The notes under the pieces were generated by a model. The model was not told the DNA's origin. It made no database searches and saw only the letters and a list, made by a program, of their open reading frames with translations. A stretch of DNA of 64,000 bases from Lophium mytilinum (taxonomy: Eukaryota > Ascomycota > Dothideomycetes > Mytilinidiales > Mytilinidiaceae): assembly GCA_010093605.1 (NCBI GenBank), contig MU004187.1, positions 2,151,890 through 2,215,889 of the forward strand. Direction: 5' to 3'. Positions 28,207 through 64,000 of this stretch are shown here, piece after piece. Position numbers and translations under genes: made by a program. The first letter of the stretch is position 1, and each line of letters opens with the position of its first letter.

Positions 28207-28240
28207 CCTATATAATAGATAGAAAGGCTATATAATTATA

Positions 28241-30085: not shown

Positions 30086-30248
30086 CTAGGTTGCGTTATT
30101 CTTTAAAACCTAGAAATATAGAAACCTTAATTTCTTTTTATATAGCTATACTACTATACGCACACGCACCTATATAGGTGCTGCTAGCTTTAAGATTTAG
30201 CTATATAATTACTTAATTACTAACCTTAAAACTAATACGTTTTCTTTT

Positions 30249-30280
<32 letters not shown>

Positions 30281-34600: not shown

Positions 34601-35791
34601 GGAATTTCTAAATTAAGAAACGCGTAGAGAATACTAGTTACTTACGTAACCTTCTAGAAGACTACGTATTTTGCCGCTCCGCGGGCTTTACGCTACTCCG
34701 TAAAAGTTTATCCACTTCTTACGCGAAATTTGCGCGCAGGCTGCGCAGATAATTCTTAATTATAGATAATCTAGTATTATAGGCAATTATTATAGTTAAT
34801 AACTACTTTATAGTCCTTGTAAATATAGCTATCTACCTCCTCTATCTAACCTTCTAAAACTGCCTAATCCGCCTAGGTTGCAGATAGATAGATAATAATG
34901 TAGATAGGGCCTTATATACTAAATGCGTAATTATTACGTATAGTAGGAAATTTAAAGTTGCACTAGTATATCTAGTTATCTCTTCTTACTACCTCCGCTA
35001 GGGCTTTATAGTCTATAGTAACTTCGCATGCATTATAGACTTTACGCGTTATATAGATAGTAATACCTGTATATATTTCTAAGAATTACGTAACTATTAC
35101 TAACCTTAATAATTTTAATATCCTAGTAGACTATTAGAGCTAGCAACGCGTGCGCTAGACGTTTAGGCTAGGGAATAGCACGCAATATATATATTGCGCG
35201 TTAGATAGTAGACTATATAGTAATTTAGGACGCATCTAATTACGGTATATATATTATAAAATAGAAAGATAACGCTAAGTATAAGATAGAGCCTACTTAT
35301 ACCCTATTTACTAATTCTATGCTACTATTTCTTGTCCCTAATACTTTTAAGCAACTTAATAACTAGCCGCAGGCTTTCTTCTCTAGAATCCTGTGCCTTA
35401 ACGCAGGCAGCTATAAACTTTTAATATTAGTCCTTATTAGATATAATTATAGTATTATTTTTATACTAGCTGCATTTATCTTTCTTTATATAGAACTGCT
35501 GCCTAAATTACATAAATAAGAGATTAAGAGGGCACTGCTTCTAGCAGTTCTTTATTTTAATACTCTTCTTAGCCTTTCTATAAATTAGAGCTAAGCGGTA
35601 TAAGTTATTATTAGTAAGGGGCTCTATATTATTAATCTTATTATTCTATAGTTAATATAATTAGTATATTATGCTTTAGCTCTCTACCTTATATAATTAC
35701 CTATACTATCTATAATATCTAATAAAGTGTCCCTAAGGGGGGGGCTAGATGGAATTAAATATAGTAAGGATAAGTACCTAGAGTTAAATAG
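34601..35791. other. E2 left terminal region
   Basis: Homologous to all of the E1 left segment. No family could be read in any frame, though the minus strand has short open patches. Near 34,714-34,748 is a GC-richer, probably subterminal, stretch with ATTTGCGCG and two GCGC-containing repeats. The same nonamer recurs near the right end at 61,131-61,139. This segment may hold transposase-binding sites. Confidence 0.4.
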
Positions 35792-36586
35792 TTATACTTT
35801 GCTCTTAATGCGCTTTATTAGCGCATGTATCTTCTTGCGTTAGTTAATAAAGTTCCGCTGCTAATCCCGCTCCTTTACTTCTATTCTCGCTACCCTTGCG
35901 GTAAAGGCCTGTTATTGTTCTAGTATTATGTCTTTAGTTAAATCTAATACGTTATAGCGGTTGGGGTTATTATATATATTCTTATTATTATCTTCTTTAT
36001 AGTTTATATACCGACCTACCCGTTTTATAATAAATTCTTGCTAGTAGGATAATAGTTAGTGCTTGCGGCGTAAGCTAAGTGCCCGCTATTAGGCGAGACA
36101 TTTATTATAATTTGCTACCCTAGCTTATAGTTAGCATGGTCTTGTATAAGGGGGGCGGTAGTTAATACTAGTAGCGGCGACCCCGTAAATTAGGTTTATA
36201 CGCTTCTAGCCTAAGGTATATTTACTAATAGCGTAGTAGAGGCAAGTATATATATATATAATAGTATCGCCTAAAAGGGGGTTAAAAAACTCTTTTAAGT
36301 GTCTTTATATCCCTAAGGCGTTTATAGACTATCCTGTAAAGAGTAGGTCTATAACTACTATCTAGATAGCCTTAGCTATAAAGATTACTAGTGGCCCCTA
36401 TAATCTATTAGAATGCTGTCTAACGCTAGGTTAGTAACTAACCTTAGCTTAGTCTTTATCTGCCCTAAAGAGATAGTTCTAATCCTTTATTAGCATTAAT
36501 GCGGTGCTAGTAATATCTAGAGTTATAGAACTAAGACTATAGCATTCTTATATAATATTATAAGCAACCTTTATTATAGTATTGCG
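35792..36586 (-). pseudogene. Unidentified element-E protein (C-terminal part)
   Basis: With RIP stops read as Gln or Trp, one minus-strand frame stays coherent for about 265 codons and ends at TAA 35792-35794. Recognisable stretches include SSITLDITSTALMLIKD, NYLFRADKDQAKVSYQPS, RLQGPLVIFIAKAIQIVVID and EFFNPLLGDTIIYIYTCLYY. The tail is a basic, Gln/Arg-rich helical region. The coherence shows that it was a protein, but I do not recognise the family. The frame includes the palindrome ATGCGCTttattAGCGCAT (35808-35826) where Gypsy inserted in copy E1. The N-terminal part further upstream was not resolved. Confidence 0.5.
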
Positions 36587-39500
36587 GAAATAACTAAAAG
36601 TATTATAAATCTAGGTTATATATTATAATTAGCTATTATATAAGGTTATAGAAGTAGGGAGAGGGTAATATACCTTCCGCGCGCAAAAAGGGTCTAGAGT
36701 AGTGGGGACATTAGCTTAAGCGTAGAATAGTTAGTCTTTATAGACGTCTGCCTATGTTTATATTAGTACTTACTAAAATATATCTAGCCTAATACTTTTA
36801 GTCTAGGCTATAAGGTTATTACTATATTCCCTAATTATATTAGTACCTAATACTATGCTTCTAAGTATCTAGTATCTTATTTATTCTTCTACTGCCGTAT
36901 ATTTTACCTCTATAGTTAGTGCTTTAGCATGCCTATCTACGCTATTCTATATCTAAATTATTTTACTGCGTTATTTTATGCTAAGGGAGCTAATGCGGTT
37001 ATAAACGGGTGTGCCTCTACCTGTGCCTAAGAAGCGGCTAGTAGGAGAGAAGAATAGTAGACTACTTAATGCAAAGATATTAGACCTAGTTATTTAGTTA
37101 ATAGCCCTGCGGGCTTCTATTCTAGCCGCTGTCTTATTTTAGACTATGGCGGTACTCTAATAGGTATTTATTAGCATATACTACTTAGTAGAGTAGCTAT
37201 AATATATATATAAGCTAATCTTACGCTTAAAGTCTATTTACACGCGGAAGTTAGTATTACTAGATTAGAAGATAGGCGTGTACCTGTTCTTATCCTCTAT
37301 ACCGCGTTTTCTCTTTCCGGCAAGAGATAAGGTGCGGCTGGACGGCCGAGATAATATAGTATTGCCGTCTTAGAATATTCTAGTAGTGCGTTCTCTTTTA
37401 CTTATTAAGTTCTATATATTTATTATTAGTTAGCAGGCGTTAGAGTTAAGGGAGCTAGGCGCGTTACTATGTTAATTAGTTTTAAGGCAGCGCGTTTTTA
37501 CTTTTTTACTATCTATAGTTATATGCGTTAGCTGTATATATATTAACGTGTACTATAGATAGGGTATATAGTATAGCATATTTAAGTTATATAGTAAGTC
37601 CCTATTTAGGGTAGAAAGAGATAGTTTTATATTACCTTTTACTATATTTAAGTAGGTAACGTTAAGCCTTACTAAATAATAGATAGGGGGCGTGTAGTAA
37701 AAGAATATTCTATTTTTTAAGGTAGAGTGCGAGAATAATAACTATAAAGGGAAGTAAAGTAGATTATAATTAAGTAGCGTGGAGAGAAGGGAATAAAGGG
37801 GGAGTAAGTCGCGCGTTTATTATAATAGAATATAATAGAGCTAGCTAGATGCGGTCTATACGCGTTAACTTAGCGTCTTTAGCTAGTTATATGCCTCTTC
37901 TCTATCCCCCCCTTAATAAAGCCCTATTATCCTATATAATTAAACACTTCTATCTACGCAATTACCTCTTTTATTATATTGCCTTAGACTAGAGCTTGCA
38001 CTTACGCACTTGCATTAACTTCTACTAATTGCCGCACGCGCGCTACTACCTTCCGCTGTTATTTCTAGATGGCATTTTCTACACTATTAGAATAGTAGTT
38101 AGTTAAGAGATTATAGACTTTGCATTCTATATTATTAGATAGATGGCTAGCTAAGTTAGAGGCCCTAATAGAGGTATTAATATCGCAACGCGCAGCTGTC
38201 CCCTTATCGCTAACTTTATCTCTAGTTAGGCGACCTACTTAGGCGTAAATAACCCGCTAGCTATCTCCTCTAGCTATAGTATATGTCCCTTTTTTATATT
38301 ATTAATAATAAACGCCTCTGCCTTTACTAACTAAATTGCGTAACCTTAAGCTATTACATTCTTCTCTCTCTCGGCCTAAAATACTCTCTTTACTACTATT
38401 TAGGCCTCCTTTCTATAATTCCGGCCCTCTATTAGTCGCCACGCTATAAGCAGTTATATACTATATTATAGGGTACTCCTCTATAGTAAAGAGGTCTCTA
38501 GATAGAAGAATAGAAGGGCAGTCTACTAGTAGTAAATTCCCCCCCCGTAGGATCTATATACCTGGTTAGAACGTTTAGCCGTGCGGCTATACTTCTAGTT
38601 CTAATAATAGCTATAGTTTAGATAACTCTATACTGCCTATGCGTAGGGATATTAAGCTATCTATATTCTAGTCTAGTAAAATAGTATAAGGTTATAATAA
38701 GGCCCCGCCTTAGAGTAGTATAGTCCTAGTCTAGTTCCCTTAGTAAGGCGGGCTGTAGAATAGTCTAATTATAAATTAGGTTAGCTAGATATATAGACTC
38801 TTGCGCTATTTAAGTTCTCTATCTTTTATAGTTCCGCACTCTTATCTCTTATATAACTCTTATATTCTTTTTAACTTTTTCTATAGCTTTAATCTCTTAC
38901 TTATTTATCTTATTGCGCAGGCGTTTATAACTAGTAGAGGCTAATATAGGTATAGGTAGAAGGATAGTATAGTGCTAGCTAGAGTAGATAGGTATAGAAG
39001 TGTTGTCTATCTATGTTAGCTATATTAATTAAAATTATTGCATGTATCTAATATACTATTTAGTTAAGGCTTAATAATTAGGGTAATATAGTCTAGTTCT
39101 CTTAATAAACTCTAATATACTATTACTATATACTAGTCTACCTTATTCTTAACTAGAAACTTAAGATTATCCGCAATATAGTAATATATAGTTTCGCGTT
39201 CTATATTAAGACTAAATATTATATTTAACCTAGTAACAAGTATACTAAATTTAGGGGCTGGCATTACTAGCATACTCTTTAGTAGCGTGGGTAGTGCAAG
39301 TTTATATACTAGTATAATGCGGGCGGCCTTACTACCTAGCCGCTTTACTAATATTAACTTTATTTCTATATACGCTAAACTACGGTAGCATTTAGGGTGC
39401 GGCGAAGTTCTATTTTATTTAGTAGGCGGAGTGTCTATAGAATTAGAATAATAAGACGCGTTAATATAATCTTATCTTTTCTTATTATAGTTGTATCGCT

Positions 39501-41279
39501 GTGCAAGTTTTAATATCTACTTATATTCTTCTTTAAGTAGAATATATAAAAGCATTTTAGGAAACTTCTTTATAATGTCTATTATTATAGATTATACTAT
39601 CCCCCTAATTATCTTTAAGTAGAGGGATCCGCCTAGCAGGTCTACTAACCTTATCTTAGTCTCTATCGCGGTATATAGCGTATTGTATTTATAGGCGCTA
39701 ATATTAAGGCCCTATATAAGCTTATTTCTAGAGTCCGGCTTAAGGTTATTAGGTATTAGGGACTAGCCTTATTTATCTAACAATATAATAGTTTAACAAT
39801 TCTTAGAATATAGAAGGGGTAGAAAAGGTAAAGTTAGAGTTAGTTTATATACGTATTTAGATAACAGAGTGCTAAGACTAGACTCTTATCGCGTCTGCGT
39901 AACTAAATCGGCTACTTTAGTAGTAACTATTTTATAGTAATTAATAGGATACCTATACTGCCTCTTCTCTTAAGAAGGAACTAAAGCCCCTTCGCATTAA
40001 TAGTAACCCAGTATTTATTAAGTTATTAGTGTAAGATCTAGATAGTTTAGTATTAGGCTGAAAATTCTATATTTTATACTGCTGCCTAATATATTTATGC
40101 ACTTAAGTATTAGAGATAATTATAAATAATGCTCTATTATTAACTATTACTATATAACGGCCCGGTTTATTTATCTAAATATATACTTAGGCGGTGCTCC
40201 CTTTTTTATAATTATTAATATTATTATAGGGCGCTATTATAATGCTTTAGGGCTTTAGCTAATTATATATAGTATAGGGATACTAATATTATAAGAGTAT
40301 AGGCCTACACGCCTATTTTAGGATACTCTTATTTAATTTATATAATAGCTAGGACTAGGGATATATACTTTCTCTAGCGACTTAGATGTATTAAGAAGCG
40401 TAATAAATATAATAGTGTTTTAGAGTATTTTCTAAATTAAGTAGAAAGGTTGCAAATAGATAGCGTCTAAATTAGCTATAGAGTAGCATGTGAATGTATT
40501 ATACTATCTTAAAACTAACCTAACTTATCTCTACGTCTAATTAGCTGTGGTGTTGGTAGTATATTAAAATATAGGTAGCTAGAAAGAGCTTAGTATTAGT
40601 AAGTGTATACTTTTCTACCCGTTTTCTTTTAGCTAGTATATATATACAGCACTAAATTATACTACTATAGGCCTATAGTATACTCTAATTTATAGGCTGC
40701 TCTATTTAAATCTCTTTATTAGGAATATAAGTAAGATTAGATGCATACTAGCTACTAATATCCTATAGTCTAGATTAGAAGGGTAGAATAGAGGGTTCTT
40801 GCAACCTTTCTATACCTTATAACGTGCGAGAATATTACTAATAATATATGCGGGCCTATAGAGCATTAGCGCCGCTGTATAGATATTTACCTATATAATG
40901 CTATAGTTTATATTACTAATACTTAGGCCTTAAATTACATTTAAGGCTTATACTGCTAATACCTAAGCCTTGCGGTAAGTATATAGTTAAGTAGATTATA
41001 TTAATATTAAAAACGGGCAGTCTATAGTAGACCTGCTATAGATATAGTATACTTATTAACGCGGTAATTGCAGGTGTATTATAGAAGTAGAAGTTAGAAT
41101 AGTTTATTTTATAATATCTACTATAGAACTATATGCACTATATAATTAGTGCATTTAGTAGTTACCTTAGTACTAATAGTTTCTTAGTTTTTCTTCTTTT
41201 TTAGTATACTTTATATAACCTTATATATAAACTTATTATTATTAACCGCACGGGACTAAGCTAGCGTATCTACCGGGTT
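36587..41279. other. E2 interior, unresolved
   Basis: No stop-tolerant frame could be followed with confidence over this 4.7 kb, although minus-strand patches (for example LGTGRGTPVYNRISSLSIK near 37,000) suggest that the upstream part of the 35.8-36.6 kb gene or a second minus-strand gene is present. The sequence is moderately RIP-mutated and shows no internal repeats that I could see. Confidence 0.35.
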
Positions 41280-44200
41280 GTTACCCCCTATATAGGCAAG
41301 AATAATGCTGCATATTCTATTAGACCTCTAGTTCTTCTACTATACTTTAGATATAATCTATATCTTAAGGCCGGATGCGGTCTATAGCTCTATAACTATT
41401 ACGCACGTATATTAAAAAGTAAAGTTAGAGCCTTCTACTCCTCTAGTCTTTCGGTTTGCGACTAGAATATTAACGGCCGCTAGATTGTCTTAATTACGCT
41501 TAAAGCTAGTATTAAATTACTTCTATTACTTAACTATTAGCAATAAATATAACTATGCAAGCTTTTTAGTTAGCATAGTCTTTATAATTATCTAGTATTA
41601 ATTATATTAGTTTATTAGATAATAATTGCCAATTATAGATAGAGATAGGTAGCAACTTATAATGCAGATAACTAAATTAACTATAGGCTTCTTGCTAACA
41701 ATTAGTATTTTCTTCTTCTTAGCTTAAATGTATTAAACTATGCTCCTAATCTTCTTTAGCTTCCCTAAATTAGCTAGTAGGTCGGTATACTATTTAGCGA
41801 GAGTACTTTCTAAGTCCGTGTAATCTATCTAGCCCGCATTTTTAATATCTTCTAGAGTAAAGGTTAGGTTACTTATTAAGCTAAGCTCTTTCTATTACAT
41901 CTTTAACTTAGCTAGCCTAGGAATTAATGCAAAAATCTAGGGCAGCCTTCTCTTACCTAAGCCTGTTAGAAAGGCGCCTAGGCTAAAGGAAGGCGGCGGC
42001 TTATTAATTGCTGCTCTATGCCTTAGCTATTCTTTATACTCTTCTTTAAGGTCTGCGTATCTCTCTCTAATAACTATATAGTACTCCTTAATAAAGGGTT
42101 TAAAGTAGTTAAGTATACTAACTATTACCTGCCGTATAATATAGAGCGGCATATTCCCTAAGGGAAGGCCGTCTAGGCTAAGGCTTATTAGCGTTCTACA
42201 GATGCTTATAGCTGTAATTATATCTAACACTCTCTAGAGATGCCTAGATAATTTAGAATTATTCTATAGTTGCCGCTCTTTCTTTATTTTTAAGGCAAGG
42301 TAGTAACCTCTAGCCCCTATAAGGTCTCCTTAATTAATACGCCGGAGGGTAGGGCCTTAATAAAGAATATTAAACTTATCCCCTTTATCTATATCCTCTT
42401 TCTCTAACTCCTTATCTAGAAGAGTATTATCCGGGTTGTCTTTAATATTAGCGTTTAAGTTAGTTAGGTCTACTATCTAAGTTAGCGTCTATAAACCTCT
42501 ATATAGCATAACTATTAAATATAATAGAGTTTTAGGGCCGCGGAGAAAAGAAGTCCCGCTATAGAATAAGCCTCCGGGGTAGCTATATAGATTAGCAGCC
42601 TTATTAAACCCTCTTAAGTCCTAGCCCCAATAAACCTAATTAAGCGCACGGTTAATATTTGCCTATTTGCGCGTAGTTAGATAGAATGCATGCTAATACT
42701 GCATAGACTTAATATAGCTAAAAGCTGTAATATATAGAGATATATTATTAAATTCTAGGTAAAACTTATTAAAAAAAACGGCCCTATATATATACGTGGG
42801 GGTTACTCTATTACTATATAATAGGTTATAGAATATTATAAAGGTCTCTAGTAAGTTTAAATTCTTATTATATTTTTTATTAAAGGTCTCCGCGCTTATA
42901 ATAATAAGGTAGGTTTTTACTTTTAGATTTAGCTTATACTATACCCGACTGTTTATTTCTTAGTGGATAGGCCTAAGGTTCTTCTAGTCTTTAGAAGTAA
43001 GGTTACCCTCTATAATGCTTCTATATACACGCTAGATATAAAGTCTTCCGCTAGGGACCTTAAAATTCTTATTCTTATATTTAATATCTAGCTAGTATTT
43101 CGCCTTCTTATAGGTCTAATTTAGTAGACTCTTCTTAGTAAGCTAAATAACGCAGCCTTTAACGCTGCTAGAATGTAGAGTATTAGTACTAGCCTCTCTA
43201 GTATAAGTAGTAAATGCTATTAATATTTATAGAGTTTTTCCTATTCTAGGGGGGTCTATAAGAATTAGCCTACGCGCCCTACTAGTAAGACCTTAGATAA
43301 TACTATATATCCCGGCCACCTAGTATAGGGCCGCACGCATCTTTAGGTTAGTAGTTATTTCTAGTAGCTTAAAGGTTGCGTTACTAGAAAAATTCCTATA
43401 TATTAGAGGTAAACTAAAAAACTATAGCACCTTCTTAAATGCTGCTATTAAGATATTCTTTATAGAGCTTAATATTAGGGCTATTATAGCAGTAATATTA
43501 ATAGTATCTACCTTCTCTATATTGGCTGTAATTATCTTATTTATATCTATAGAGGGTCTAGTTTTACTAAGACTATATATATTAAATTTAAGCGTAGCTA
43601 TAATATTAATACTACTAATTACTATATCCCCTGCAACTTAGGTATTACTAGGGATAGTCTAGCTGCTTTCTATAGCAACTATAAGCGTATAGAGTTGTTT
43701 TTAGGCGGTTAGGTACTAAGTAGTTCTAGGCCTAAGCGCTCTAAGCTGCTATATAACCTTATTATAGATAATACTAGGCTAAATAGAATTACGCATTAAC
43801 TTAGTATATAGCTAGATAATATTAAGCATCTATTAGAGTAATTGCGCTTTCTTCTCTACTTATAGCTTTTATACCTTCTTCTCTACTAGTAGTTTCTACT
43901 TTCTTTATTTCTCTTACTCCGCTATCTCTTCTAGCTATTTCTGCCTCTTTGCTTTCTCTTTAGTTACGGTCTTAGCTAGCTCTCTTTCCTTCTATTCTAT
44001 CTACTTTTTGGCCTTCTCCGCTATTACTATATCTACTAGCTCTCTCTCCTTTATCTCTTTCTTCTTTATCTCTTTCTCCTTTATTTCTTTCTTTTTTCTT
44101 TCTTTCTCTACTTTTACTATTTCTGCCAGCGCTTTCTCTACTAGCGCTTTCTCCGCCAGCTCTTTCTCCGCCAACTCTTTCTCCTTCTTCTCTTTCTCTT

Positions 44201-45560
44201 TCTTTTCTCTCTCTGCTTTTGCTGTTTCTACCAGCTCTTTCTTCTTTTTTTCTTTTTCTTCTTTTACTATATCTACTAGCTGTTTCTACTTCTTTCCTTT
44301 ATTCTATTCTGTGGTAGAATTAACTCTATCTATATTAGCTATATATATATATAGACTTATAGTTAAGTTAATAATTATTTTATCTAGAGTATTAGCGGCG
44401 GTAGGTTTAGGTAGACCCTTAGCCGCGGCAGCCTTAGGCTTGCTATAGCGGGGGCGTTTCTTAGCCGGGCGGATACTAGGGGGCGAGGACTTAAGAAAGT
44501 GCAGACCTAGCTATGCATTAGTTAGTAGTAATATTTAATAATTAATAATAATTAATATATATCTAGTCTTAAGTTTAGATATTATCTCTCTAATGTTAAG
44601 GCCCTTTACTATAAAACTAAGTACTATCTCTTTAGGTATACTCTTTATTTTCTCTAATAGTGTAGTTAGATAGAAGTTATTCTCTATTAACTTCTAGGTT
44701 CTATTAACTATAATAATGTGCTCTAGAGGGTTAAAGTCTATAAAAGTTCTATTAATAGCTTCTAGAAACTTTATAAAGCTATAGTCTTCTAGCTCTAGGC
44801 CTTTACTACTAGACCTTGCAAGATAGAGAGTAAAAAGGCGTCTAGTACTTTCCCGCTATAGCAGCTAGTATATTGTGGCGAGGACTGCGTGCAATAGCCG
44901 GGGCTTAAATAGAGTATTTCGGGCAGTAATATCTAGGGATTTTATTAGAGAGCTAAGGCCTGCTAATATAACTAACTTTATAGATAAGGCTAACTTAAAC
45001 CGCTTCCGCTTTTTATTACTTTTAATAATACTGCCCCGCATCTTATATTTCTTATAGACTTTATACTAGATTAATATCTAATACGCTTACTTCTACTTAG
45101 CTAATATAGAAGACTCCTTAAATATATAACTCTATATATCTATAAAAAGTATATATATTTTAGACTAAGTATCTAAGTAGGTATTATTCTTGCTATAGTT
45201 GTTTTAGCCTAGTTATAAGAGATATTTTACCTGTAGGTATACTTTAGAGTTCTCTATTAGTATAAATAAGTTAGCTTCTATCTAGCGCTATATCTTAGAA
45301 GCTAGACCTAAGCCGGCTATAATATTTATTTAACTTAAGTAGCCTTTAGAGTTCTTAGTAAAATTAAATGCCGCCTTACTCTGCAAAGATATATTGCGTA
45401 GTAGGTCTACTAGGAATATTATAGTCTTCCCCTAAGTAGGTCTAGAGCGTTAGCGGCTACTATAGGGAGGCCGGCGGCTGCGGCGGTTATCTAGCTTATC
45501 TAGCTCTAAATTACTATTGTAGTCTACTTAACTAGAGTCTATACTTAATAACTATTTATC
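41280..45560 (-). pseudogene. SNF2-family helicase/ATPase with charged coiled coil (element-E cargo)
   Basis: Stop-tolerant minus-strand reading gives, in order: an acidic/Arg-rich N-terminus (YNSNLELDKLDNRRSRRPP, about 45,500); a long Lys/Glu/Ala coiled coil (about 44,300-43,870, EREKKEKEKKEKELAEKA type); then an SNF2 ATPase. Motif I reads LILIDPPRIGKTLQILIAF (about 43,260; the Arg is explained by G-to-A from GIGKT). Motif II is degraded (VFFNKFYLEF). Motif III reads YSGTSFLRGPK (ancestrally SGTPFLRGP), and the helicase-C start reads KKKILIVSKKP (about 41,660). Motif V/VI-like sequence (EGSNFTFQYT, then IISKV) follows near 41,500-41,400. SNF2 ATPases translocate on DNA and remodel chromatin. 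On a transposon this may help transposition or target access (inference). Confidence 0.65.
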
Positions 45561-50094: not shown

Positions 50095-52259
50095 AGAGGG
50101 CCACTATAATTAGGAATAATTAATAATAATTAAAAATAATTAGATATTCTGCGGGCGGCCCGGGTAGACTATAGTATAAGAGTTGCTGCTGGCACTAGTT
50201 ATAGGCGCCGGCGACTTAGACGGGAGGCAGTATCCCTGCTACTAATTTAGAGGTGTTAGTAATCTAGAAGTCTTCTATACCTATATACTTAATTTAAAAT
50301 ACTAAGTTATTATTATATTTACTATAGGTTATATATATAAATACTAGATAGTAATATATATAGCCTATAAGCTAATATCTTCCTAGGGCTAAATATCTAC
50401 TAGCCTAATTTCTAGCACTATTAATAAGGGCTTAATAATTCTTTAGCTTCCCTATTAACCTAGTACGGAATAGGGCCTAGAGTTTCGCCGGGGTATTATT
50501 ATAAAAGTAGCTAAAGAACTTAACCTACTTTTAACGGCGCGGTATAGACTATTAAAGAAAGGCTTAAGCACTCTTATAATCTATAAGAAGATAGTCCTCC
50601 GCCCTTACTACTTACTAGTTCTTATAAGTTGTCTACTCTCTATCTACCTTATTCTTATTAAGTGTAGTTATTGCTAACGTGTATACCGCTAATTCTACCG
50701 CGCGCAAGAGACTTAAGCGGCCGAATTAGTAATATTATAAAACTCCCTGCCTAACTAGCGCCTTCTAGCTATTATCTAATTTTGCGCCAGCTAAGAGAGA
50801 CGCGGAGTTTAACCTAGGCTACTTAATGCGCATCTAATATTACTATCTTGTAGCCGTCCTATAACTAGCACTTACCCTAGCCGCCGTCTTCTTAATAACG
50901 CCGGCACTCTTAGTAGATACCCGTTAACTCTATTCTACTAGACTAGCAATACATCGCCGCCCAGCGCTCGCCTTGCGGAAGGGAGTAACGCGCTTAAACT
51001 TAGTGTCTTCTTCTATATTACCTAGATAGCACTCGCCTAGAGTTAAGAGTTCTTTACTATAGCTAGTAACTGCGGCAGGAAGTTAGATACTAGAAATTAG
51101 TAAGAGGTAATACTTACTTTTAACACACGCTGTACTATTAGAACTAGGGAAACTAGATATAACTACTAGTACGCGCTTAAAACTACGCCCACTATAAAGG
51201 TTTATGCTAGCTATAAAGGATATAGAAATAATAGAAATAATTACGTACGGGCTTTAGGGTTATAGTTTAAGGGAGTAAGCCGTAGTCTTTAATATGTAGA
51301 TGCGTTAAGGGTCTAGGCTAATAAAATAGCCCGCCCCCTATTAGAATGCGTTGCGTGCTATTAAAAAATAATAAGTACTATATACTAGCCTATAATCTAA
51401 TATAATCTATAATAATTACTTGCAATCTATAAGTTTCTATATAGGGCTAACTAAATTTAACTAGAAATAGAGTATATACTTTCTACTAAATATAAATACT
51501 GCTATAAGTTATTCTAAATACTTAGCGCCCTAAATAAATATATACTATGCTATAAAAAGCTCCTTAAGATACTATAGCGGGTTCCGCTTGCTAATACTAG
51601 AACTACTAGATCCGTAATCTAGTCTTGCATGCTCCGCGTTATTTAGATAATAGACGGGATATTATTTAGAACGCCTAGATTGCTACTAGTAAGTCTACCC
51701 CTACTAGCTAACCCCTGCAATAAGATAGAGTATAAGATAAATAAAATAGAGCTATATATCTCTAGTAAACTAGAAGAGTACTAGAGTCCGCCTTTTATAA
51801 ATAGAGGCCCTATAAGCTTAATATATAATAACCCGCCGGAGGCTACTAAATTCTACGTTCTATACTAATAAGGCCGACTAATAATATTATCTATATTATT
51901 ACTGTAAGAGGAAGTATATCCCTCTACTAAATTAGGTATGCCTGTAGGGGCGTCTATTAGACAGGCTAATACTAGATAGTAGATGTAAGTATTATTAGGG
52001 ACTGCTATCCCCCCCGCCCGTAAAGGCGGTATTAGAGCTTACTAACTAGTTACTCTATTATAGGGACTAATCCCCCTTCTATCTATTTTAATTAGCGTTT
52101 AACTATGCTTTTATATTATAGCTTTAGTAGATTAGCTGCACTAAGAATAATATTAACCTGCTATTTAATAACATCTACCTTAAGAGTATATTCTCTAACT
52201 CTCTTATATTTACATTAGGCGATTTATAGAATAGTAAACTAGAGGAAATTAGATATAGT
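50095..52259. other. E2 interior upstream of the transposase
   Basis: Contains fragmentary plus-strand frames. Part of it, from about 51,400, probably belongs to the N-terminus of the Plavaka-type transposase (YCYKLFQILSALNKYILC near 51,490 might be a decayed Cys/His segment), but the frame is broken and I could not join it. Confidence 0.35.
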
Positions 52260-54870
52260 ATTAGTAATACTAACTACATAGTAGAGATGCTGCATTTCCT
52301 AAGTAAAAAATAAAGCTTAAGCGGAGAGTGGCATCTAGTATACTACTTTAATATAATAGCAGCTATATTATTTCTAATTAGACACCGCCCTTTCTATAAT
52401 TACCTTATATTTATACCGGTTTAAGTCCGCAATATAGAAGGCCGGTAGGTATATACTAAGTTGTATACATTAGACTAGTAGTAGTAGACTTAGTTAAAGC
52501 TTCCAGCGGGGGCTATAGTAATACCTATCTTACTCTCCGCAGATAAGATATAGCTTACCTAATATTACGGCGATAAGAGCGCATAGCTAGTCTATCTAAC
52601 TATTAGTAATCTAGATAGGACTACGCGGCGCTTAAATATATTACCTGGCACCCTACTACTAGGCTTTATACTAAGCACGGCGGATAAAGAAGACTACCTA
52701 AAGTATTAGCTATACTATAGCTCTTTAGGCTACATTCTTAGGTATTAGTAAAATTCTTACTAATACTAAGCGGTTTTCTAATATAAAATAAGCTATTATA
52801 GAATATACTACTAACGGAATTATACTAGAATGCAGGGATAGTAAGAATTAAAGGTGCTATCTAGTATTATACAGAATTATAGCCGATTATAAAGAATAGA
52901 GCCTACTTATAGGTATTAAATTTAGAAAACACTGCACTATATACTAGGTACTATTGCATTAACGCGAAGACCTAGAGACTAAATACGCCGCAAGGTCTTA
53001 TTACTTAACTATTATTTAGATTAAATAGCAATGTAATAATAAAGAGTATTTAAAACTTCTACTAAATAAAGCGCTATATAATATAGAGGCTATAGAGCTT
53101 AATATAGAGTTATATATATATTCTATAAATAACTTTACCTAGAAACACCCCTATACTAATATCTACTAGATAATAATAATAGATATTCTATACTAACTAT
53201 TTACGGGCGTTATTTACAACCTTATTAAATGGGTCTAGCTACTAGTAGCGGAGGTCTACACCCCAGCAATTAGAAGAAAAGATGCCCGTGTTCTAATAGA
53301 AAATAAGAGCGGCTTAACCTAGCTAGACGAGCGATTTAAGGACGTGCCGCCTTTCCCGGGTCTATCTACGTTTAATAAGAAGAATTTTAGTAAACTTTTA
53401 TAGTATACTAGCTCTAAATAAAAGTCTATAGCCCGCTAGCTTATAGTAGTAGTAGCACTGCTGCTAGAAGTAAAGGCGCTAAACGCGCTCTAGTTCGTCT
53501 ATATAATGCTTAATTTTACTATTCTAGTGCAGTATAAGATGCATAATAAGGCCACGCTAGAGTATATAGAGCTAGTAATAGCTTAAATTAATATATATAA
53601 GTTAGAATTTAGAATATTTAGACCTAGAGATAAGGATGGAAACTACGCCTTCTACTATTTAAAATTCTATGTTATGCAGCACTACGTCGATTTTATATAG
53701 AAATTTGGCGCCATTAATAGCTATAATACCGGCTTAAATAGTAAAGTAAAATACTAATACCTAGTTAAATTACGGTATTAGTTAATAAACTATAAGGACT
53801 TTCTACCCTAGATCTACTAATTAAACTAGAGACTTATAAATAACTAGGCTATAAACGATATACTAAACTACTAATATTACTATTCTTAACCGGCAGTAAT
53901 AAGAGATATACTAATATAATAGATAATAGTATTAGAAAGCATTAATATCTTAAACTTTAAATAGCCTAGATATAATAATTTCTATAAAGGCTAAATAGTA
54001 TACTATCTAAAAGTAAGTATTAAGTATATAGCTAATATAAGCCGGGAGCTAGACTTTATAGCCGCCGCCGCCGTATTTATTTAAGAAGAGAGGCGCAAGA
54101 TCTAAGGCTAATATACTAAGCCTAGCAGTCTAGATATATTAGACCCTAATCTATTCTAGGTTAGCTACCTCTAGCTTAAGTTTTACGCTAGTATTTTGTG
54201 TTAGAAGCAATTAGGTGCTAGCAAGGACCTAGAAAGCCTTATAAAAGAAAATCTACAGTATAACCCTAAGTAGTAGAACTAAGAATAGCAACGCAACTAT
54301 TTATAGGTGTAAGAGTATGGCTTAGACTATACTAAAAATAGAAAGACGCGCGTTAGTATTACTAATAGAAGGTTAGTAGGGTAGCTGCAATTTATAGTAA
54401 CTATTATAGACCCTATTCTAAAGAGTAAAGATACCTTATAGGCGGCACACTCTAGAGTTTTTATTTACCTTCTAGCGCTAATTAATAACGGGAAGCTATA
54501 TTATGTCTATGGCCTAGTAGAGGTAGCTTCTTAGACTTCTAATAATAGCCGCCGCTAATAAAAGCTAGAAGTATATTAATTCTATCTACTACTATAAGTC
54601 CTCTAAAGTGTATATATTATACTAGCTACCTTTAGCCTAGACTTTACCCATTTTTTTATTAATAACTATATTAACTAGGATTAATATAATATACTCTATA
54701 TAGAAGACTAGGAGATAGAGGCGCAAGAGGTAATAAGGTAGTACCGGCTTAGCGGTTGCGCTAAAGAGATTAAAGCTGCCCTAAGAGTTAAAGACGCAGC
54801 GGAGATTTTAGTAAAGCGCGTAAGGGTAAGAGCACTTACTAACGCCTTTCTCCCGCAACTAAGCCGGTAA
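52260..54870 (+). pseudogene. Plavaka-type (KDZ superfamily) DNA transposase
   Basis: Reading through RIP stops gives the diagnostic Plavaka block near 52,505-52,650: AIVIPILLSADKIQLTQYY, GDKSA, VYLTISNLDRTTRR and GTLLLGFI (typical ancestor IPILLASDKTQLT...VYLTIGN). The second block at about 53,200-53,400 reads LFTGVIYNLIKWVQLL and LDERFKDVPPFPGLSTF. The third at about 53,680-53,800 reads YVMQHYVDFI, INSYNTGLNSK, and YKDFLPQI. The first block and the later ones differ by one frame, so an intron or indel lies at about 53,040-53,160. The last frame ends at TAA 54868-54870. KDZ transposases are RNase H-fold cut-and-paste enzymes, and fungal members are associated with large elements carrying accessory genes. 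Dead here because of many stops. Confidence 0.75.
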
Positions 54871-57800
54871 ACACTAAGAAGTAGTATAGCGAAGAGGGGC
54901 TATAGCACTAGCAAGCAACGGCGTAAATAGAAATAAGGCCGCAAGAAAAGACGTCCTTAATTTTTCCCTACTATTAAGAGATAATTAAGCATTATTTAGC
55001 TTTATTAACCTCTAAGGCTAATTAATATAAGATAATAACTGCGTACTTTCCTATATAATTTCTATAATACTAGGTAACGCTAGTATACCCTGCTAGCGCT
55101 GCCTTACTTTACTTTTTAAAATTATACGTTGCTACCTTTACCTGTTTCCCTTTACTAATAACGGCCGCCTAATTAAATTTACTAGCTACTTAAACTTACT
55201 ACCCTCTAATTACTTTCTTTCCTTAATACTTTGCAGTAATTAACCCTAAATAGCGCCTATAGTAAGTATATTATCTATACTAGAGGTTCTAGGCTATAGT
55301 TAAGTTATAAACTACTTTCTAGTGGGTTAATACTGCAAGATAGAGGTGTAAGGTGCAGACCTTAATACACTTAAACTGTACTTACCTATTCTAGTCTAGT
55401 TAGACGCGGATAAACCTCTCTCTAAACCGGGTTGGGACTATAAGATACCCTCCGCCTTTACTAGAGCGTATACGTCTAAAGAGGGGGATATTTTCTATCT
55501 CCGCAACTTTAAGTATATTAGTAATAATACTCCGTATTTTAGCCCTATTAAACTAATACCTGTAAGCTATATAACGTTCTAGCCGATAATACTAAGCTAA
55601 TAGAATAAGCGTTTTATTAATTAAAGCTGCACCTATCTATACGCGGTTAGAATGTAATCCTTTTATAGCCCTACGCTATAAGATATAATACTAAGATAAA
55701 TTATCTAGAAGAGTTAGCGAGTATTAGCCTACTTAAAGAGGTAAGTAAGTACTCTCTCTTCTATAGATACCTACTAATATAATATTCCTTTTCTAGCTAT
55801 TTAGGTAATGCTATTAAGACTCTATTATTTATAATACTTATATATATATATTACCGGGTAAGACGCTAACCTTTACCCTCCTAAAATTCTTCTATATATA
55901 TAGTCGCGTCTACTATATAGACCTAAATACTAATAAATACTTTAGCCTATAACTATTATCTCCTGCTATAATATATATAGATTGCGGATCCGCTAGCCTT
56001 ATAGATAAGTGTACCGGTCTAGACCCGCTCTAACTAAATATAGCTAACTAGTTAATAATACTTTAAAACCTCTTAAGCGATATCTATATGCGATATATTA
56101 TTAACTATAAATAATAGTTAGACTGTAACCTACTAAAGCCTTTTAATCTAGAGGACTTTTAGCACTTAGTTAATCTATATATAATAGAACTTACTAACTA
56201 TAGAACTAATTTAGAGATAAGTAAAGCGTTTAAGTTAGAATTTAAGCCTAATACAGATAATACGGAGAAGAAGAATATAGAGATAGAGGCAGGCGAGGTA
56301 GATAATACTAAAGCGGAGATAGAGGCAGACAATATAGAAATAGAGGATAGCGGGTAGAAGGCTTCTCTTAAGCGTGCTTAAGTTATATAGTAGGCGGTAT
56401 ATATAGTTAGTCTAGACCCCTAAATATAGTAGTTTATTCTATAATAGCGTCTATATTTAAGTATAAGGTATAATAGAGTTTTAAAAATATTAATACATAA
56501 GTTAATTACTAGCAATTTAATTTTTCTTACTACCCATACGCTTAACCCTTCTCTTTTATAGATTATTAATTATAATTAGAGATTATATATATCTCCCTTT
56601 TATAATTAGAGTTAGCCCGCTACTTATATTATCTTACCCGTCTTAATTCTATTATACCCCTTCTTGTTAAGTAGGGCTACTACTTATTTAAATACCGCGC
56701 AGGTATATATAAGTTAGTTATACTAGTTAAGATTTACGCCCTATAAACTATTTAAAGTAATACCTAGGGTAGCTAATATTAGGGGCTGCATCCCTAATAA
56801 TATTAAGAGGCATTCTATTAGTAGACCTACTACCCCGTCTAATAGACCTAAATTCTTCCTCTAATTCTAAAGTAGTATATATTATTCTTTATCTTTAGGC
56901 TCTAACGCTAGAAGACCGCCCTTTATAGAGCCCGGTATCGCCCGCGGCTTCTACTCTATTGCCTCTAATGCTTAATATAATTAATTATAATTAGAGATTA
57001 TTACCCTCTTACAATAGTATAAAGTCTATCTTAACTATCTAACTTCTTAGGCTACGCAGCGTTATCTATTACCTAAGCTAAGGCTATAAACCCGCTTTAC
57101 CCGGTAGGCGCGCGTTATGTTATAGCTAGTAAAGACCTTTACCTCCTCCGCTAATAACTAAGCAGGCCGGTAAGTAAAATCTAACTCTAATCTTACTCTC
57201 GCGTATAAGCCTTGCTATACTCTTTCTTACTATATTACTAATAGCTTAATAGCCTAAATTACTGCAACCCTGCTACTGCAATAGAGTAGATAGTAGTCTA
57301 CTAGGATAGACTGGCGGACCTTACTATTACTATCTATATTAATAGCTATATAGACTACTTTAAAGCGCTATATACTATATATAGCGGAGATAACCTAGAG
57401 AAAGCTACTATATTTCCCCAGCGCCCTTAGAAAGATATTACTAACTTTAAGGTTAAATATAATATACTTATCCAGTCTATATATAAGTATTTACTATACC
57501 TAGTTCTAAGTTAAAAATTAGGTAATATAAAGGGCGGCCAGTTTAATAAGCTAGAGATAAAGACTATACTAGAGGTAGTAAAGAAGGCCTATAGGGATAG
57601 CTCTAAGAGCTTCTTTATTAAGAATTAGGCCTACGTAAGTCTATCTACTACTTCCCTACCTATATCTACTAACTATTCGCTAGTATAAGGAGCTTATAGT
57701 ACCTATAGTTCTAGATAAGAGCGGCTTTAAATACTCTAGAGGTAAAGAAGGTATAGTAGTGTAGCTATATAAGGGCTATAGACTCTAAGTTAATATATCT

Positions 57801-60800
57801 ATAAACACGCTTAATATTACTAGCAGCGCAGTACTAATTATATATATAAGCTACACTTTAATACCTACTCTACTAAGTATATTCTAATCTGTAATTATTA
57901 ATATAGATGTTAGAAAGACCTTCTACTACTACTAAGACCTAAAATATACGCCGCTGCTATACGTAAGAAGATTACATATTTACTAACCTATATTTAGTCC
58001 TCTTACTAATGCGTGCCTACTTTATTAACTCTAAAGATAGTTCTATATTTAAAGTTAGCCTTATAAACCTAATATTATTCTGCTTAAATTACGCCGCCTT
58101 AGGCAAGGCTATTAGCTGCTATGCAGCTACATCTAGGGAGAAAGGGGAGAAAGACAACTGCGACCTTTAACTAGAAGTCTAAATTTACACTAAGTATATT
58201 CTTGCAGTTAAGCCGCAGATCTTAATATTCTAGAAGACTAGAAGCGTGTAAGTAGTGCTATTATTGCTAGAGACCTATATCTTTATAGACAAGCCGCAGA
58301 CCTTAATACGCTAGAAGACTAAAAGTATATAAGAGGCGCTATTATCGCTAGAGACCTTAGTAATAGCTAAGGCTAAAGAGAAGAACTTAGAAATAGCAGT
58401 ATTAGGATAAGAGACTTAAGGTGCAACCTTAAAGAATAAATATAAAGCGCTACCTAATAAACTAGAGCCTATAGACCTTATAGAAGATAAAGATAAATTA
58501 GATATATACTACTTTAATAATAGAAAGAACTAGGTAGAGAAAGTTAACTAGAATAAAGAAAATGCTATAGAGGAGGTATTATCTATAGAAGACCTAGATA
58601 GCTTAGAGGTGGCGGAGGCGGCCTTATATAAGGCTAAAATAGGCCTAATTATAGCTTAGACTAGCGTTAAGAAGGCCTTAGAAATTATGCGTACTTGTAT
58701 AGTAAGGGATAAAGAGGAGAATACTAACTCTACTATCTTCTACTCCCCTAATATTATCTAAGAGACGCCTAAAAGTGGATATAGAAGGCGTGTACACTTA
58801 GTATAGTAAGTACTTCCTTAAGGAATTACTAATTTCCTAGCGCATATATAGGTAGAAAGCGGCCTTAAATAGAACTATATAAGTCTATCTATATATACTC
58901 TCTATATACCTTCTATACCCTTACGCCGCTGCTAAGTTAACTTTTAATAGATGCGCAGCATGTATATATACCTTATGTCTTAGAGCCTATCTCCGCCCTA
59001 AGCTCTAACTTAGAAACTGCTTATCTACCTACTTCTAATATAAACCCCCTAAACTGCACACGCTTAAAAATACTACTAGTCTTATAATATCTATTTAGAG
59101 ATGTTCTATAGTTATAATACCTAGCGCGTTAAGCTATAATATAAGGGATTAAACCTAAGGCTAATTAAGAATAACTATTAGTAATAATGGCGCACTACTA
59201 TAAAGACGCACTTATGCAAGATCCTAATAGTATACTTAAGGGAAAAGTATATAGCAACTATTAGTTAAAATACGTGCGCCTAAGCCTTAAATTTCTAGCG
59301 CCTGCCTATATATATAACAGGACTATTCTCCTCTATTCTACGGGTATAAAAGCCTGCCCCGCATCTCTTTCTCTATGCTATAGAGTAGTAGAAGGTAGTA
59401 AGAGTTAAAAAGGTAGAAGAGTTATAGTAGAGATTAACTTAAGGCTAACTATTTAGAATATAGCGGGTGTTAAAATTGCGTATACTAATAAATTATAGTA
59501 GGGGCTAAAGCTAGCAGAAACTTATCTAAGAAGCTAGAATATAGAGAATAAGAGGTAGTGCGCGGGTATAGCTTACTAATAGTATCTACTATAATAGAAA
59601 GCTAATAGCGCACTAATATCTAGGTTAGTAGTTAGACTAGCACAGTTCTATAGAGCTATATTAGGCAAAGGTAATATACTCTAGTATTACTAGCTTATAT
59701 TGCCTACTAAGCTTCTCTATCCCTTCTGCTCTACTCTATAAGCTTTTTTATCTACTAGGTTTCTCTATCTCTTCCGCTCTACTCTATATAATAGCGCCTT
59801 AGTTCTAGTGTAATCTTTTATATATATAGCTCTTAATCTTTCTAACTACTACACGCGACTATATATCTATATTCCCCACCGGCTTTTAACCCTACCCTAA
59901 CTACTACTTCTCTAGCCCTACTTTCCTTAGAAAATAAGCGGGTAGATAGAATATATACTCTATTACCGGCGCTAGATACACTTTAATCTAGTATTACGGG
60001 GATAATCTAGCCCTTATATGCGCTAGTAATAGACGACTATCTACTATATAATAACGCGGTAGAGAGAGGGAAAATAAAGCTACCCCTACTCTAATATCTC
60101 TAACTCTCCTTGTAGTACTGCGCAAGATTATCTAGAATTATATAAGATTATCTATAATTATTATAGTGTGCCCCCTATATTCTTATATTCTAAAAGAGAC
60201 TCTAGCCTATTTTTTTAAGTATATTTTAGGTTCTATAACTACCCCGCTAGATAGAGAGTATATATTCTTATTACCTTCTAGCGTATAAGTACACTATAGG
60301 CTAGGTTGCAAAATAATAGTATCTTAACTCTTAAGGTTAGAAGTGTAATAGGAGAGACTATAAACAGAGGAGCGGCAACCTAAAATATAGATAGAAGGAG
60401 TAAAGCGTGCTAATATAGAGGGAAATAAAAGACGTAGAAGAAGTAAATAGAAAGAAGGGGCTATAGAGGCGGTAGCGTTATAGCTATAATACTAGAGGCT
60501 ATTCTATAATATAGATATAAGAGACTACTACTAGAGCTTATATTAGTAGTAGAATAGTTATATACTTTTTATTATTTGCGGATAGTTATACACCGCGGCC
60601 TAACTCTTAAATAATGGGTCTTAGTAGCAACGTAGTAAGAGTCTACCTAAGAATATATTAAGTATCCTAATTATAATTTATAAGCTAGACCCAGCACTAA
60701 ATTATAGAATAGATAGATTATATCTTTTCTACCTATTCTTTATATATCTATTAAATCTACTTTTTAACTACTATAGCCCTAACTTTACTATACTAACTGT

Positions 60801-61207
60801 TTATAGGATAAAGATTAGACGTTCTAGCCTAAGTACTTACTATCTCTACTTACTTCTACCCCCGCCTTGCACTGCTATAGAGAGGGAAGAGCGGTAAATA
60901 GAATTATTTTATAGCAGAACGTGGGCGGCATTATATACGGGGCACGTGTGTATTAGCTCTAGTACTGCTAAGGCTAATTAGGTAAAAGATACTATAGAAC
61001 TAAATTATTAATAGTTTAAAATAATAGATAATAATTAAGTGTTATTAGGCTGTATAGTATATAGGTAAACTACTACTAGTCTATATAGTAATATTACCTG
61101 CGCTAGTAGTTTACGCAGACATTGCATAATTTGCGCGGTTTACCGGAAGTTTGCGCCGTTCGCTGCCGAGCACTAATAGCCCTAACTTTTATAGTTTTAG
61201 GTTTTTC
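54871..61207 (+). other. E2 right part, unresolved coding relics and right terminus
   Basis: Plus-strand patches look protein-coding: an acidic repeat-like tail near 56,050-56,370 (IEIEAGEVDNTKAEIEADNI) and a frame near 57,290-57,620 (TIYINSYIDYFKALYTIYSG, GGQFNKLEIKTILEVVKKAY). Neither is recognised. The last ~120 bases, with much CG and CA/TG left (61,105-61,175), look nearly unmutated and contain ATTTGCGCG, shared with the left end. The element ends at 61,207. Confidence 0.4.
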
Positions 61208-63455: not shown

Positions 63456-63691
63456 TATTATATTATTTCTTAGTATTCTCTTAGTAGTTATTAAGGTTAG
63501 AAGTTATTATATATACGGACGTTACGTAATCTCCGGGCTAAGAGTTCTTCCGGCGCCCGAGGTTCTACCGGCGCCCGGGGTTCTACCGGCGCGTACTTAA
63601 CTATATAGTAGGCTTATAGCTAGAGCCTCTCTTCTTTCTATATAACCTTATTAATAGAAATATAACCCTTTTCTTAGCTATAAACCTAATA
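63456..63691 (+). repeat. 3' LTR of the Gypsy-type retrotransposon
   Basis: 236 bases, same length as the 5' LTR, starting TATTATATTATTTC (ancestral TGTTACGTTATTTC) and ending CTATAAACCTAATA (ancestral ...CA). It is followed by the RIP-altered target duplication ATACG (63692-63696), pairing with ATGCG at 29845-29849. Confidence 0.9.
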
Positions 63692-64000
63692 ATACGCTTT
63701 ATTAGCGTATATATCTTCTTATATTAGTTAATAAGGTTCTACTACTAATTCTACTTCTTTACTTTTATTCTTACTACTCTTATAGTAAAGGCCTATTATT
63801 ATTCTAGTATTATATTTTTAGTTAAATCTAATATATTATAGTAGTTAGAGTTATTATATATATTCTTATTATTATCTTCTTTATAGTTTATATACTAACC
63901 TACCCGTTTTATAATAAATTCTTACTAGTAGAATAATAGTTAGTACTTATAGTATAAGCTAAGTACCCGCTATTAGGTAAGATATTTATTATAATTTACT
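63692..64000. mobile_element. Large DNA element E, copy E1, continuation (runs off the window)
   Basis: Homologous to E2 from 35,808 onward (atgcgctttattagcg... there, atacgctttattagcg... here) and heavily RIP-mutated. It carries the C-terminal part of the unknown minus-strand gene described at 35792-36586. By comparison with E2, another ~25 kb of E1 should lie beyond the window. Confidence 0.85.

What the first reader, a model, noticed from the sequence alone, without database searches (positions are those of the whole stretch)
34601..61207. A 26.6-kb Plavaka/KDZ-type element carrying an SNF2 ATPase and unknown large genes
The element combines a Plavaka-type transposase with an SNF2 remodeller that has a long coiled coil, and at least two other long frames of unknown family. 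Such a multi-gene load is far larger than a simple cut-and-paste transposon. An element-encoded chromatin remodeller could help it act in silenced or RIP-prone DNA, or choose targets. At least two copies exist in this window, so it was mobile as a unit.
Basis: partly seen in the sequence, partly recalled or inferred. Interest (0 to 1): 0.9.

Follow-up and report, generated by a model that had tools for sequence, protein, structure and literature searches.

The report
Giant RIP-mutated multi-gene Plavaka transposon
This is the mutated remains of an unusually large (26.6 kb) fungal jumping gene that copied itself around the genome as one piece, carrying a Plavaka-type transposase plus several other genes, one of them an ATP-binding protein that only loosely resembles chromatin remodellers.

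Summary
Window 34596-61212 (26,617 bp) is one mobile element, inserted in a Gypsy retroelement that itself sits in an older copy of the same element. The joined flanks match two uninterrupted Gypsy copies without a gap, leaving a 2-bp duplication. Five full-length copies in the own genome share the layout, each with a matching 2-bp duplication, and differ almost only by RIP-type transitions: 4,513 transition columns against 34 with a transversion. This rejects two elements lying side by side.

The transposase is Plavaka (PF18759, E=9e-20 in the least mutated copy). Kojima 2025 moves Plavaka from KDZ to the EnSpm-like CMCT clade.

The "SNF2 remodeller" is only partly supported. A ~1,500-codon frame with a K/E-rich stretch and a P-loop exists, and SNF2 is its best of three profile matches (E 8e-5). 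Pfam, PDB and protein searches found nothing, and canonical SNF2 genes mutated in silico remain easily detectable. A divergent helicase-like ATPase is likeliest.

A DUF6532 domain (E=2e-9 in one copy) and further coding blocks point to two mostly divergent gene arms. New variant of a known kind.

The parts
34596..61212 (+). Whole element E2, 26,617 bp (orientation set by the transposase)
   Evidence: Joined flanks match two uninterrupted Gypsy copies; four other full-length copies align end to end
34594..34595 (.). Left copy of the 2-bp target duplication (CT)
61213..61214 (.). Right copy of the 2-bp target duplication (CT)
34596..34614 (+). Left terminus TATTAGGAATTTCTAAATT; CATTAGG in copy C12A
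61194..61212 (-). Right terminus; first 9 bases inverted match the left end at 9 of 9 in copy C13 and 8 of 9 in the other four full copies, imperfect beyond
52170..54300 (+). Plavaka transposase gene, at least two frames (mod0 to about 52790, mod1 from about 52730), broken by stops; a coding block at 54636-54876 may be its end
   Evidence: PF18759 at 52311-52805 (E=1.2e-12) and 52783-53235 (E=2.1e-10); copy C12A E=9e-20 and 1e-17; relative in Daedalea quercina E=4e-20; block
41030..45638 (-). Large P-loop protein gene, about 1,500 codons in one frame (94 stops in 1,536 codons of E2, 65 in 1,516 of C12A)
   Evidence: no Pfam, PDB or database match
43233..43256 (-). P-loop (Walker A) DPPRIGKT, preceded by a Q-motif-like YQ.AG
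   Evidence: hhalign to host SNF2 profile E=8e-5, to AAA profile E=3e-4, not to DEAD; coordinates
42756..42776 (-). FFNKFYL, candidate DExH box altered by RIP (eye only)
   Evidence: inference
41697..41720 (-). KKKKILIV, candidate helicase motif IV
   Evidence: hhalign rank 5 of 138, E=0.17, not significant; not among the five best windows when six SNF2 genes were used
43838..44345 (-). K/E/R/A-rich stretch, probably coiled coil; copies differ by 15 and 45 bp here
   Evidence: no coiled-coil predictor run
35650..37700 (-). DUF6532-bearing gene region
   Evidence: PF20149 E=1.9e-9, 38.1 bits, cut-off 24, at 36143-36619 read from copy C12A; the only PF20149 match found in the genome; not seen in E2 itself
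38000..40000 (-). Further minus-strand coding blocks of unknown family
   Evidence: codon-score map
46300..47140 (-). Minus-strand coding blocks upstream of the P-loop gene
47650..50200 (+). Plus-strand gene of unknown family, one frame (mod2)
   Evidence: no Pfam match, no PDB match
55250..58900 (+). Plus-strand coding blocks downstream of the transposase (best at 56076-56496, 57336-57636, 58236-58776), unknown family
   Evidence: no Pfam match in the plus frames; PDB asked only for 57880-58900, none
29850..34595 (+). Left part of the Gypsy-type host retroelement of E2
61213..63691 (+). Right part of the same Gypsy element
28615..29849 (+). E1, left part of an older copy of the same element
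   Evidence: 128 transitions, 1 transversion in 1,218 sites against E2; GC 0.229 against 0.319 (run on 28614-29851)
63692..64000 (+). E1, continuation after the Gypsy insertion

Best explanation
A formerly autonomous, very large Plavaka-type (CMCT clade) cut-and-paste DNA transposon of 26.6 kb with two mostly divergent gene arms. The plus arm carries an unknown gene, the DDE-type Plavaka transposase and further unknown coding blocks. The minus arm carries a ~1,500-residue P-loop ATPase with a charged stretch, and a DUF6532 gene region. The transposase would cut at short CATTAGGAA-type ends and insert with a 2-bp duplication (ends and duplication shown; catalysis inferred from family). The ATPase and DUF6532 proteins are most likely element-encoded helpers of transposition or excision/repair, like the helicases of AcademH and KolobokH transposons (inferred, about 55%). 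The whole unit amplified recently and was then shut down by RIP (shown by the substitution pattern).
For: Five full-length collinear copies with transversions of 6-24 per ~26.6 kb in the six pairs without C11. Exact empty site. One copy inserted in an older copy of itself, with an AA duplication against the E2 empty sequence. 15 left and 15 right ends in the genome, counted. PF18759 in this family only: 12 of 12 matches found lie in its copies, each with 10-24 stops. DUF6532 over cut-off in C12A. The P-loop frame gives ranks 1 and 2 (overlapping windows) of 138 frame windows against the SNF2 profile. Coding blocks beyond chance.
Against: No intact copy was found, so gene ends, introns and function are inferred. 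No homologue of the P-loop protein was found. Its DEAH and TP-type motifs are not visible, and the best hhalign probability is only 61%. DUF6532 was detected in one copy only, and its domain stretch itself stays below the 99% codon-score level (7.8 against 13.4). Two of the 15 coding blocks run against the two-arm layout (plus at 45936-46176, minus at 50436-50676). A sixth, interrupted copy lacks an identical 2-bp TSD. No relative with the same gene order was available.
Confidence: 0.85

Rival explanations
1. One reading: the second large gene is a true SNF2-family chromatin remodeller that helps the element act in silenced chromatin.
For: The best hhalign match of three tested profiles is the SNF2 N-lobe: Q-motif, P-loop and Ia over 45-60 columns (E 8e-5 and 1.2e-4 in two overlapping windows, next best window 0.062). 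The motif IV region aligned in the right place (E=0.17).
Against: No Pfam family at all in five copies scanned (C12A, E2, C11, C5, C8), and none of SNF2 type in C12A read through. Six canonical host SNF2 genes mutated in silico at full RIP still average 54-187 bits (N-lobe) and 122-177 (C-lobe), means over matched pieces, against at most 5.2 bits for any element frame. The AAA profile also finds the P-loop (E 3e-4). hhalign E-values moved with the make-up of the profiles, from 0.021 to 8e-5. All five aligned copies are RIP-mutated.
Confidence: 0.2
2. Composite: separate elements inserted into each other before the amplification, so the non-transposase genes are passengers.
For: Two divergent arms of different content; unknown genes; fungal DNA transposons are known to capture genes (PMC12730594).
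Against: Repeat searches of the window showed no second pair of element-like ends inside E2, only short local repeats; partial copies break at scattered places. Whatever its origin, the present unit moves whole.
Confidence: 0.2
3. Not a transposition unit: segmental duplications in AT-rich regions.
For: The window copies lie in a nested AT-rich repeat island, and one full copy lies in an older copy of itself.
Against: Exact ends, 2-bp duplications in 5 of 5 full copies, different flanks, precise empty sites.
Confidence: 0.01
4. A Starship or other tyrosine-recombinase giant element.
For: Size range and RIP-type host.
Against: No DUF3435 match in the scanned frames or the genome (the genome search had no positive control); DDE-type Plavaka transposase present; inverted termini and 2-bp TSD.
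Confidence: 0.01

Closest known systems
Plavaka (PlavakaA/B) DNA transposons, CMCT clade (Kojima 2025, PMC12730594; abstract, results parts 1-2 of 3 and discussion part 1 of 2 read)
   Same: Plavaka transposase domain; 2-bp TSD (PlavakaA 2 bp, PlavakaB 2-3 bp); CA...TG-type ends if the C of copy C12A is ancestral; some carry extra genes (TET/JBP)
   Different: Ends CATTAGGAA...TTCCTAATG differ from TGT...ACA (A) and CATCA...TGATG (B); carries a P-loop ATPase and DUF6532 and no detected TET/JBP; 26.6 kb; RIP-active host. The words SNF2, ATPase and DUF6532 do not occur in that paper's main text
EnSpm/CACTA elements of the red alga Chondrus crispus, 16-20 kb with 4-5 ORFs (Kojima 2013 as cited in PMC6431247; passage read)
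   Same: Related transposase clade (CMCT); enlarged multi-ORF DNA transposon
   Different: Smaller and from another lineage; their ORFs and termini were not compared here
AcademH and KolobokH (Kojima 2020, cited in PMC10799480; passages read)
   Same: DNA transposons described as sources of helicase domains in fungi
   Different: Different transposase superfamilies; here the ATPase is not a recognised DEAD or Helicase_C protein
TET-positive KDZ, hAT7, IS3EU and EnSpm transposons (PMC12730594)
   Same: Fungal DNA transposons with extra genes thought to counter silencing
   Different: Kyakuja and Dileera have 7 and 8 bp TSDs; no TET/JBP match here (uninformative control)
Starship giant elements (search listing and starts of abstracts only)
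   Same: Large multi-gene elements of Pezizomycotina
   Different: Tyrosine recombinase captain and diverse cargo genes; no captain seen here

Membership tests
Plavaka | Plavaka transposase domain (PF18759) | tested here: met
   Two adjacent frames over cut-off in E2; C12A E=9e-20 and 1e-17
Plavaka | 2-3 bp target duplication | tested here: met
   2 bp in 5 of 5 uninterrupted full copies; interrupted sixth copy not identical
Plavaka | Known termini TGT..ACA (A) or CATCA..TGATG (B) | tested here: not met
   TATTAGG/CATTAGG..CTAATA; outside both described subgroups, though compatible with the clade's CA..TG. Membership therefore rests on transposase and TSD, as a divergent subgroup
CMCT clade | C(2)C and H(3-4)H between second D and last E | tested here: inconclusive
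   Invariant D123, D215 and C247 align with two basidiomycete relatives; RIP blurs the rest
KDZ (Kyakuja-Dileera-Zisupton) | 7-8 bp target duplication | tested here: not met
   2 bp
SNF2 remodeller | SNF2_rel/Helicase_C profile match | tested here: not met
   none of the 42 PF00176 genome matches listed lies in an element copy
SNF2 remodeller | P-loop with SNF2-like surroundings | tested here: inconclusive
   hhalign E 8e-5 (SNF2, probability 61%), 3e-4 (AAA); weaker with other profile make-up
SNF2 remodeller | Seven helicase motifs in order | tested here: inconclusive
   Q and I; IV weakly in one of two profile runs; II and III only by eye
DUF6532 protein | PF20149 over gathering cut-off | tested here: met
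   38.1 bits against 24, copy C12A only
Starship | DUF3435 tyrosine recombinase | tested here: inconclusive
   No match, but the genome search had no positive control

The most novel reading that the evidence does not exclude
A distinct, giant lineage of Plavaka transposons whose transposition depends on an element-encoded, highly divergent helicase-like (SF2) ATPase and a DUF6532 partner: a multi-protein transposition machine in the EnSpm-like clade, moving ~26 kb as one unit in a RIP-active fungus. The only two transposase hits found, Daedalea and Suillus, are basidiomycetes, so transfer between fungal phyla is not excluded.
Probability: 0.35. Interest if true: 0.75.

Novelty: new variant of a known kind. 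Interest (0 to 1): 0.55.

Why it matters
Cut-and-paste transposons are usually thought of as a few kilobases with one or two genes. A 26.6-kb unit that amplified whole to about 15 copies, with at least four genes, widens what a Plavaka/EnSpm-like element can be. It gives a concrete test of whether such elements bring their own ATPase for transposition. It also shows RIP stopping a recent burst, with nested copies that order the events.

Tried and rejected
SNF2 by Pfam with X at stops (on E2; on five copies) and with stops read as Q/W: nothing of that kind. PDB by sequence and by a five-copy profile: only weak hits (best E 0.075 and 0.32) to antibodies and other unrelated chains. Two database searches for the P-loop protein: none; the first drew words from the charged stretch too, so it was weak. 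The first in-silico-RIP profile was misaligned and is replaced. Stop-codon comparison across five copies was uninformative, because CpA is nearly exhausted in most copies. Weak Pfam hits (DUF948 E=0.1, MTES_1575 E=0.024, DUF5408 E=0.59, Pet127 E=0.032, Rv2466c-like E=5.3, Presenilin E=0.9) were not accepted. In copy C12A the Pfam scans with stops read through left out the plus frames of 41.0-45.6 kb, the minus frames of 51.9-54.3 kb and short edges; E2 was scanned in all six frames with X at stops. TET/JBP and DUF3435 searches found nothing, but their controls were silent. Subterminal repeats: none beyond shuffles. The PNAS paper on KDZ/TET that I recalled is not held. I found no description of this gene set in searches of an open-licence library; that does not show that it is unpublished.
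Full report
What is there. The window has a gene-rich left part (about 50% GC) and, from about 25 kb on, AT-rich DNA (25-39% GC per kb) with strong RIP signatures: high TpA and few CpA and TpG. It sits in a Gypsy-type LTR element (29850-34595 and 61213-63691), which sits in an older copy of the same element, E1 (28615-29849 and from 63692). The Gypsy insertion left ATGCG/ATACG, a 5-bp repeat allowing for one RIP change.

Limits and mobility. The flanks of E2, joined with one CT, match uninterrupted Gypsy copies at C17 (175/181) and C19 (172/181) with no gap. Four other uninterrupted full-length copies were fetched and aligned with E2: C12:1357799-1384403 (C12B), C13:1214973-1241622, C11:258833-285321 and C12:209907-236510 (C12A). 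In 5 of 5 the two bases before and after the element agree (CT, AA, TA, AA, AG), with a chance of 1.5e-5. The 9-base ends match inverted at 9 of 9 in C13 and 8 of 9 in the other four. C12B is inserted inside an older copy of the element, whose intact counterpart in E2 shows the AA duplication directly. A sixth copy, interrupted and taken by me to be one copy (C7:1090915-1128476), gives TA against AT and so does not show an identical repeat. By my count there are 15 left ends and 15 right ends in the genome, window copies included; one further short match on C5 (98 bases) resembles the left junction and was not counted. The search tool states that such counts are lower bounds.

History. Over 26,665 aligned columns the five copies differ at 2,360 C/T and 2,153 A/G columns, against 34 columns with a transversion, two of these also with N; a further 126 transition columns hold N. 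1,340 of 2,341 C/T sites precede A and 1,210 of 2,140 A/G sites follow T, as expected for RIP. The six pairs without C11 have 6-24 transversions each. The C11 pairs show 921-928 because that copy holds 910 N. So the copies descend from nearly one sequence and were then mutated by RIP. E1 against E2: 128 transitions, 1 transversion in 1,218 sites, and E1 is more AT-rich (GC 0.229 against 0.319), in line with its older place in the nest.

Transposase. PF18759 (Plavaka) matches E2 in two frames, 52311-52805 (E=1.2e-12) and 52783-53235 (E=2.1e-10). In the least mutated copy, C12A, it scores 9e-20 and 1e-17. All 12 genome matches found for PF18759 lie in copies of this element and hold 10-24 stops each, so no working copy was seen. 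A database search found two relatives, in Daedalea quercina (E=4e-20) and Suillus subalutaceus (E=2e-10), both basidiomycetes (recalled); only the 8,000 candidates sharing most words were scored. Kojima 2025 (PMC12730594; results parts 1-2 and discussion part 1 read) moves Plavaka out of KDZ into the EnSpm-like CMCT clade, with 2-bp TSDs and TGT..ACA ends (A) or 2-3 bp and CATCA..TGATG ends (B). The present element has 2-bp TSDs but other ends: TATTAGGAA..., CATTAGG in C12A. It is therefore a divergent Plavaka, not a KDZ element.

The 'SNF2' gene. On the minus strand one frame runs over about 1,500 codons (41030-45638; 94 stops in 1,536 codons of E2, 65 in 1,516 of C12A), with a K/E-rich stretch at 43838-44345 and the P-loop DPPRIGKT at 43233-43256. 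Pfam found nothing in five copies (C12A, E2, C11, C5, C8) and nothing of helicase type in C12A read through. PDB found only weak unrelated hits, and two protein searches found nothing. As a direct test I mutated six host SNF2 genes in silico and asked whether profiles of the others still find them: at full RIP they average 54-187 bits (N-lobe) and 122-177 bits (C-lobe), means over matched pieces, while no element frame exceeds 5.2 bits. This excludes a canonical SNF2 remodeller of the kinds tested, not a very divergent one. In profile-profile comparison of 138 overlapping frame windows across the element, the two windows holding the P-loop rank first and second against a six-gene SNF2 profile (E 8e-5 and 1.2e-4, probability 61% and 55%; next 0.062) over 45-60 columns including the Q-motif. 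Against an AAA profile only the 18-19 P-loop columns match (E 3e-4), and against DEAD-box proteins the frame does not match. With a three-gene SNF2 profile the E-value was 0.021, 0.0054 and 4.5e-4 in different set-ups. In one search the motif IV region lines up in the expected place, though weakly (E=0.17); with six genes it is not among the five best windows printed. My reading: a real P-loop ATPase, more SNF2/SF2-like than the two other kinds tested, but divergent. The DExH and other motifs are seen only by eye.

Other genes. A DUF6532 domain (PF20149) lies on the minus strand at 36143-36619, E=1.9e-9 in C12A, the only one found in the genome. In Ganoderma, DUF6532 is listed together with KDZ, Plavaka and CxC2 domains as extra in two species (PMC8955403; one passage read), which fits an association with such transposons. 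A codon score trained on the P-loop and transposase frames and applied elsewhere marks 45 of 339 overlapping windows, in 15 blocks, above the 99% level of shuffles (3.4 expected). The DUF6532 domain stretch itself scores 7.8, below the 13.4 level, so the map misses real coding; the neighbouring part of the same frame is above it. The best frames switch mostly from minus to plus near 47.2-47.7 kb, so the element seems to have two divergent arms; two blocks go against this (plus at 45936-46176, a low-complexity stretch, and minus at 50436-50676). The blocks at 47.65-50.2 kb and 55.3-58.9 kb on the plus strand and at 38-40 kb and 46.3-47.1 kb on the minus strand have no accepted Pfam match. PDB was asked about the 47.65-50.2 block, the 57.9-58.9 block and the DUF6532 region: none. 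At least four genes (unknown plus, Plavaka, P-loop, DUF6532) are supported; the true number is not known.

Mechanism. Shown: ends, 2-bp duplication, movement as a unit, RIP. Inferred from the family: DDE-type cut and paste. Inferred by analogy only: the ATPase and DUF6532 proteins assist transposition. AcademH and KolobokH are described as DNA transposon sources of helicase domains in fungi (PMC10799480, passages read). Enlarged 16-20 kb EnSpm elements with 4-5 ORFs are known in a red alga (PMC6431247, passage read). An active KDZ element of Cryptococcus, for comparison, is about 11 kb with 8-bp TSDs (PMC12810828, passages read). The idea of an anti-silencing remodeller is not excluded, but the protein is not a canonical remodeller and all five aligned copies were hit by RIP. 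The host is probably a filamentous ascomycete, judged from CpA-directed RIP (recalled and PMC12730594); no call named it.

Noticed in passing
29850-34595 and 61213-63691: Gypsy-type LTR element split by E2, with a 5-bp duplication in E1; related stretches at 39 other places in the genome.
   Followed up: partly
12613-13545 and 13600-14529 (minus): Two adjacent paralogous ORFs, 41% identical over 305 positions.
   Followed up: partly
27774-28268: Cluster of AT-rich direct and inverted repeats with a run of N inside it.
   Followed up: no
L009-L011 (C12:1357300-1385400): A copy of the element inserted inside an older copy of the same element.
   Followed up: yes
L026 (C2:1911000-1914800): A left end on one strand abuts a right-end fragment of the element on the other strand, perhaps another self-insertion or a rearrangement.
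   Followed up: no
G000:C5:125481-125578: A 98-base match that spans the Gypsy/element junction of E2, possibly a duplicated junction or a second insertion at the same site.
   Followed up: no
44080 and 44222: Copies differ by 15 and 45 bp in the K/E-rich stretch, which also holds a diverged tandem repeat of about 105 bp (44032-44242), so its repeat number may vary.
   Followed up: no
58210-58357: A short direct repeat of 67 bp, 84% identical, inside a plus-strand coding block.
   Followed up: no
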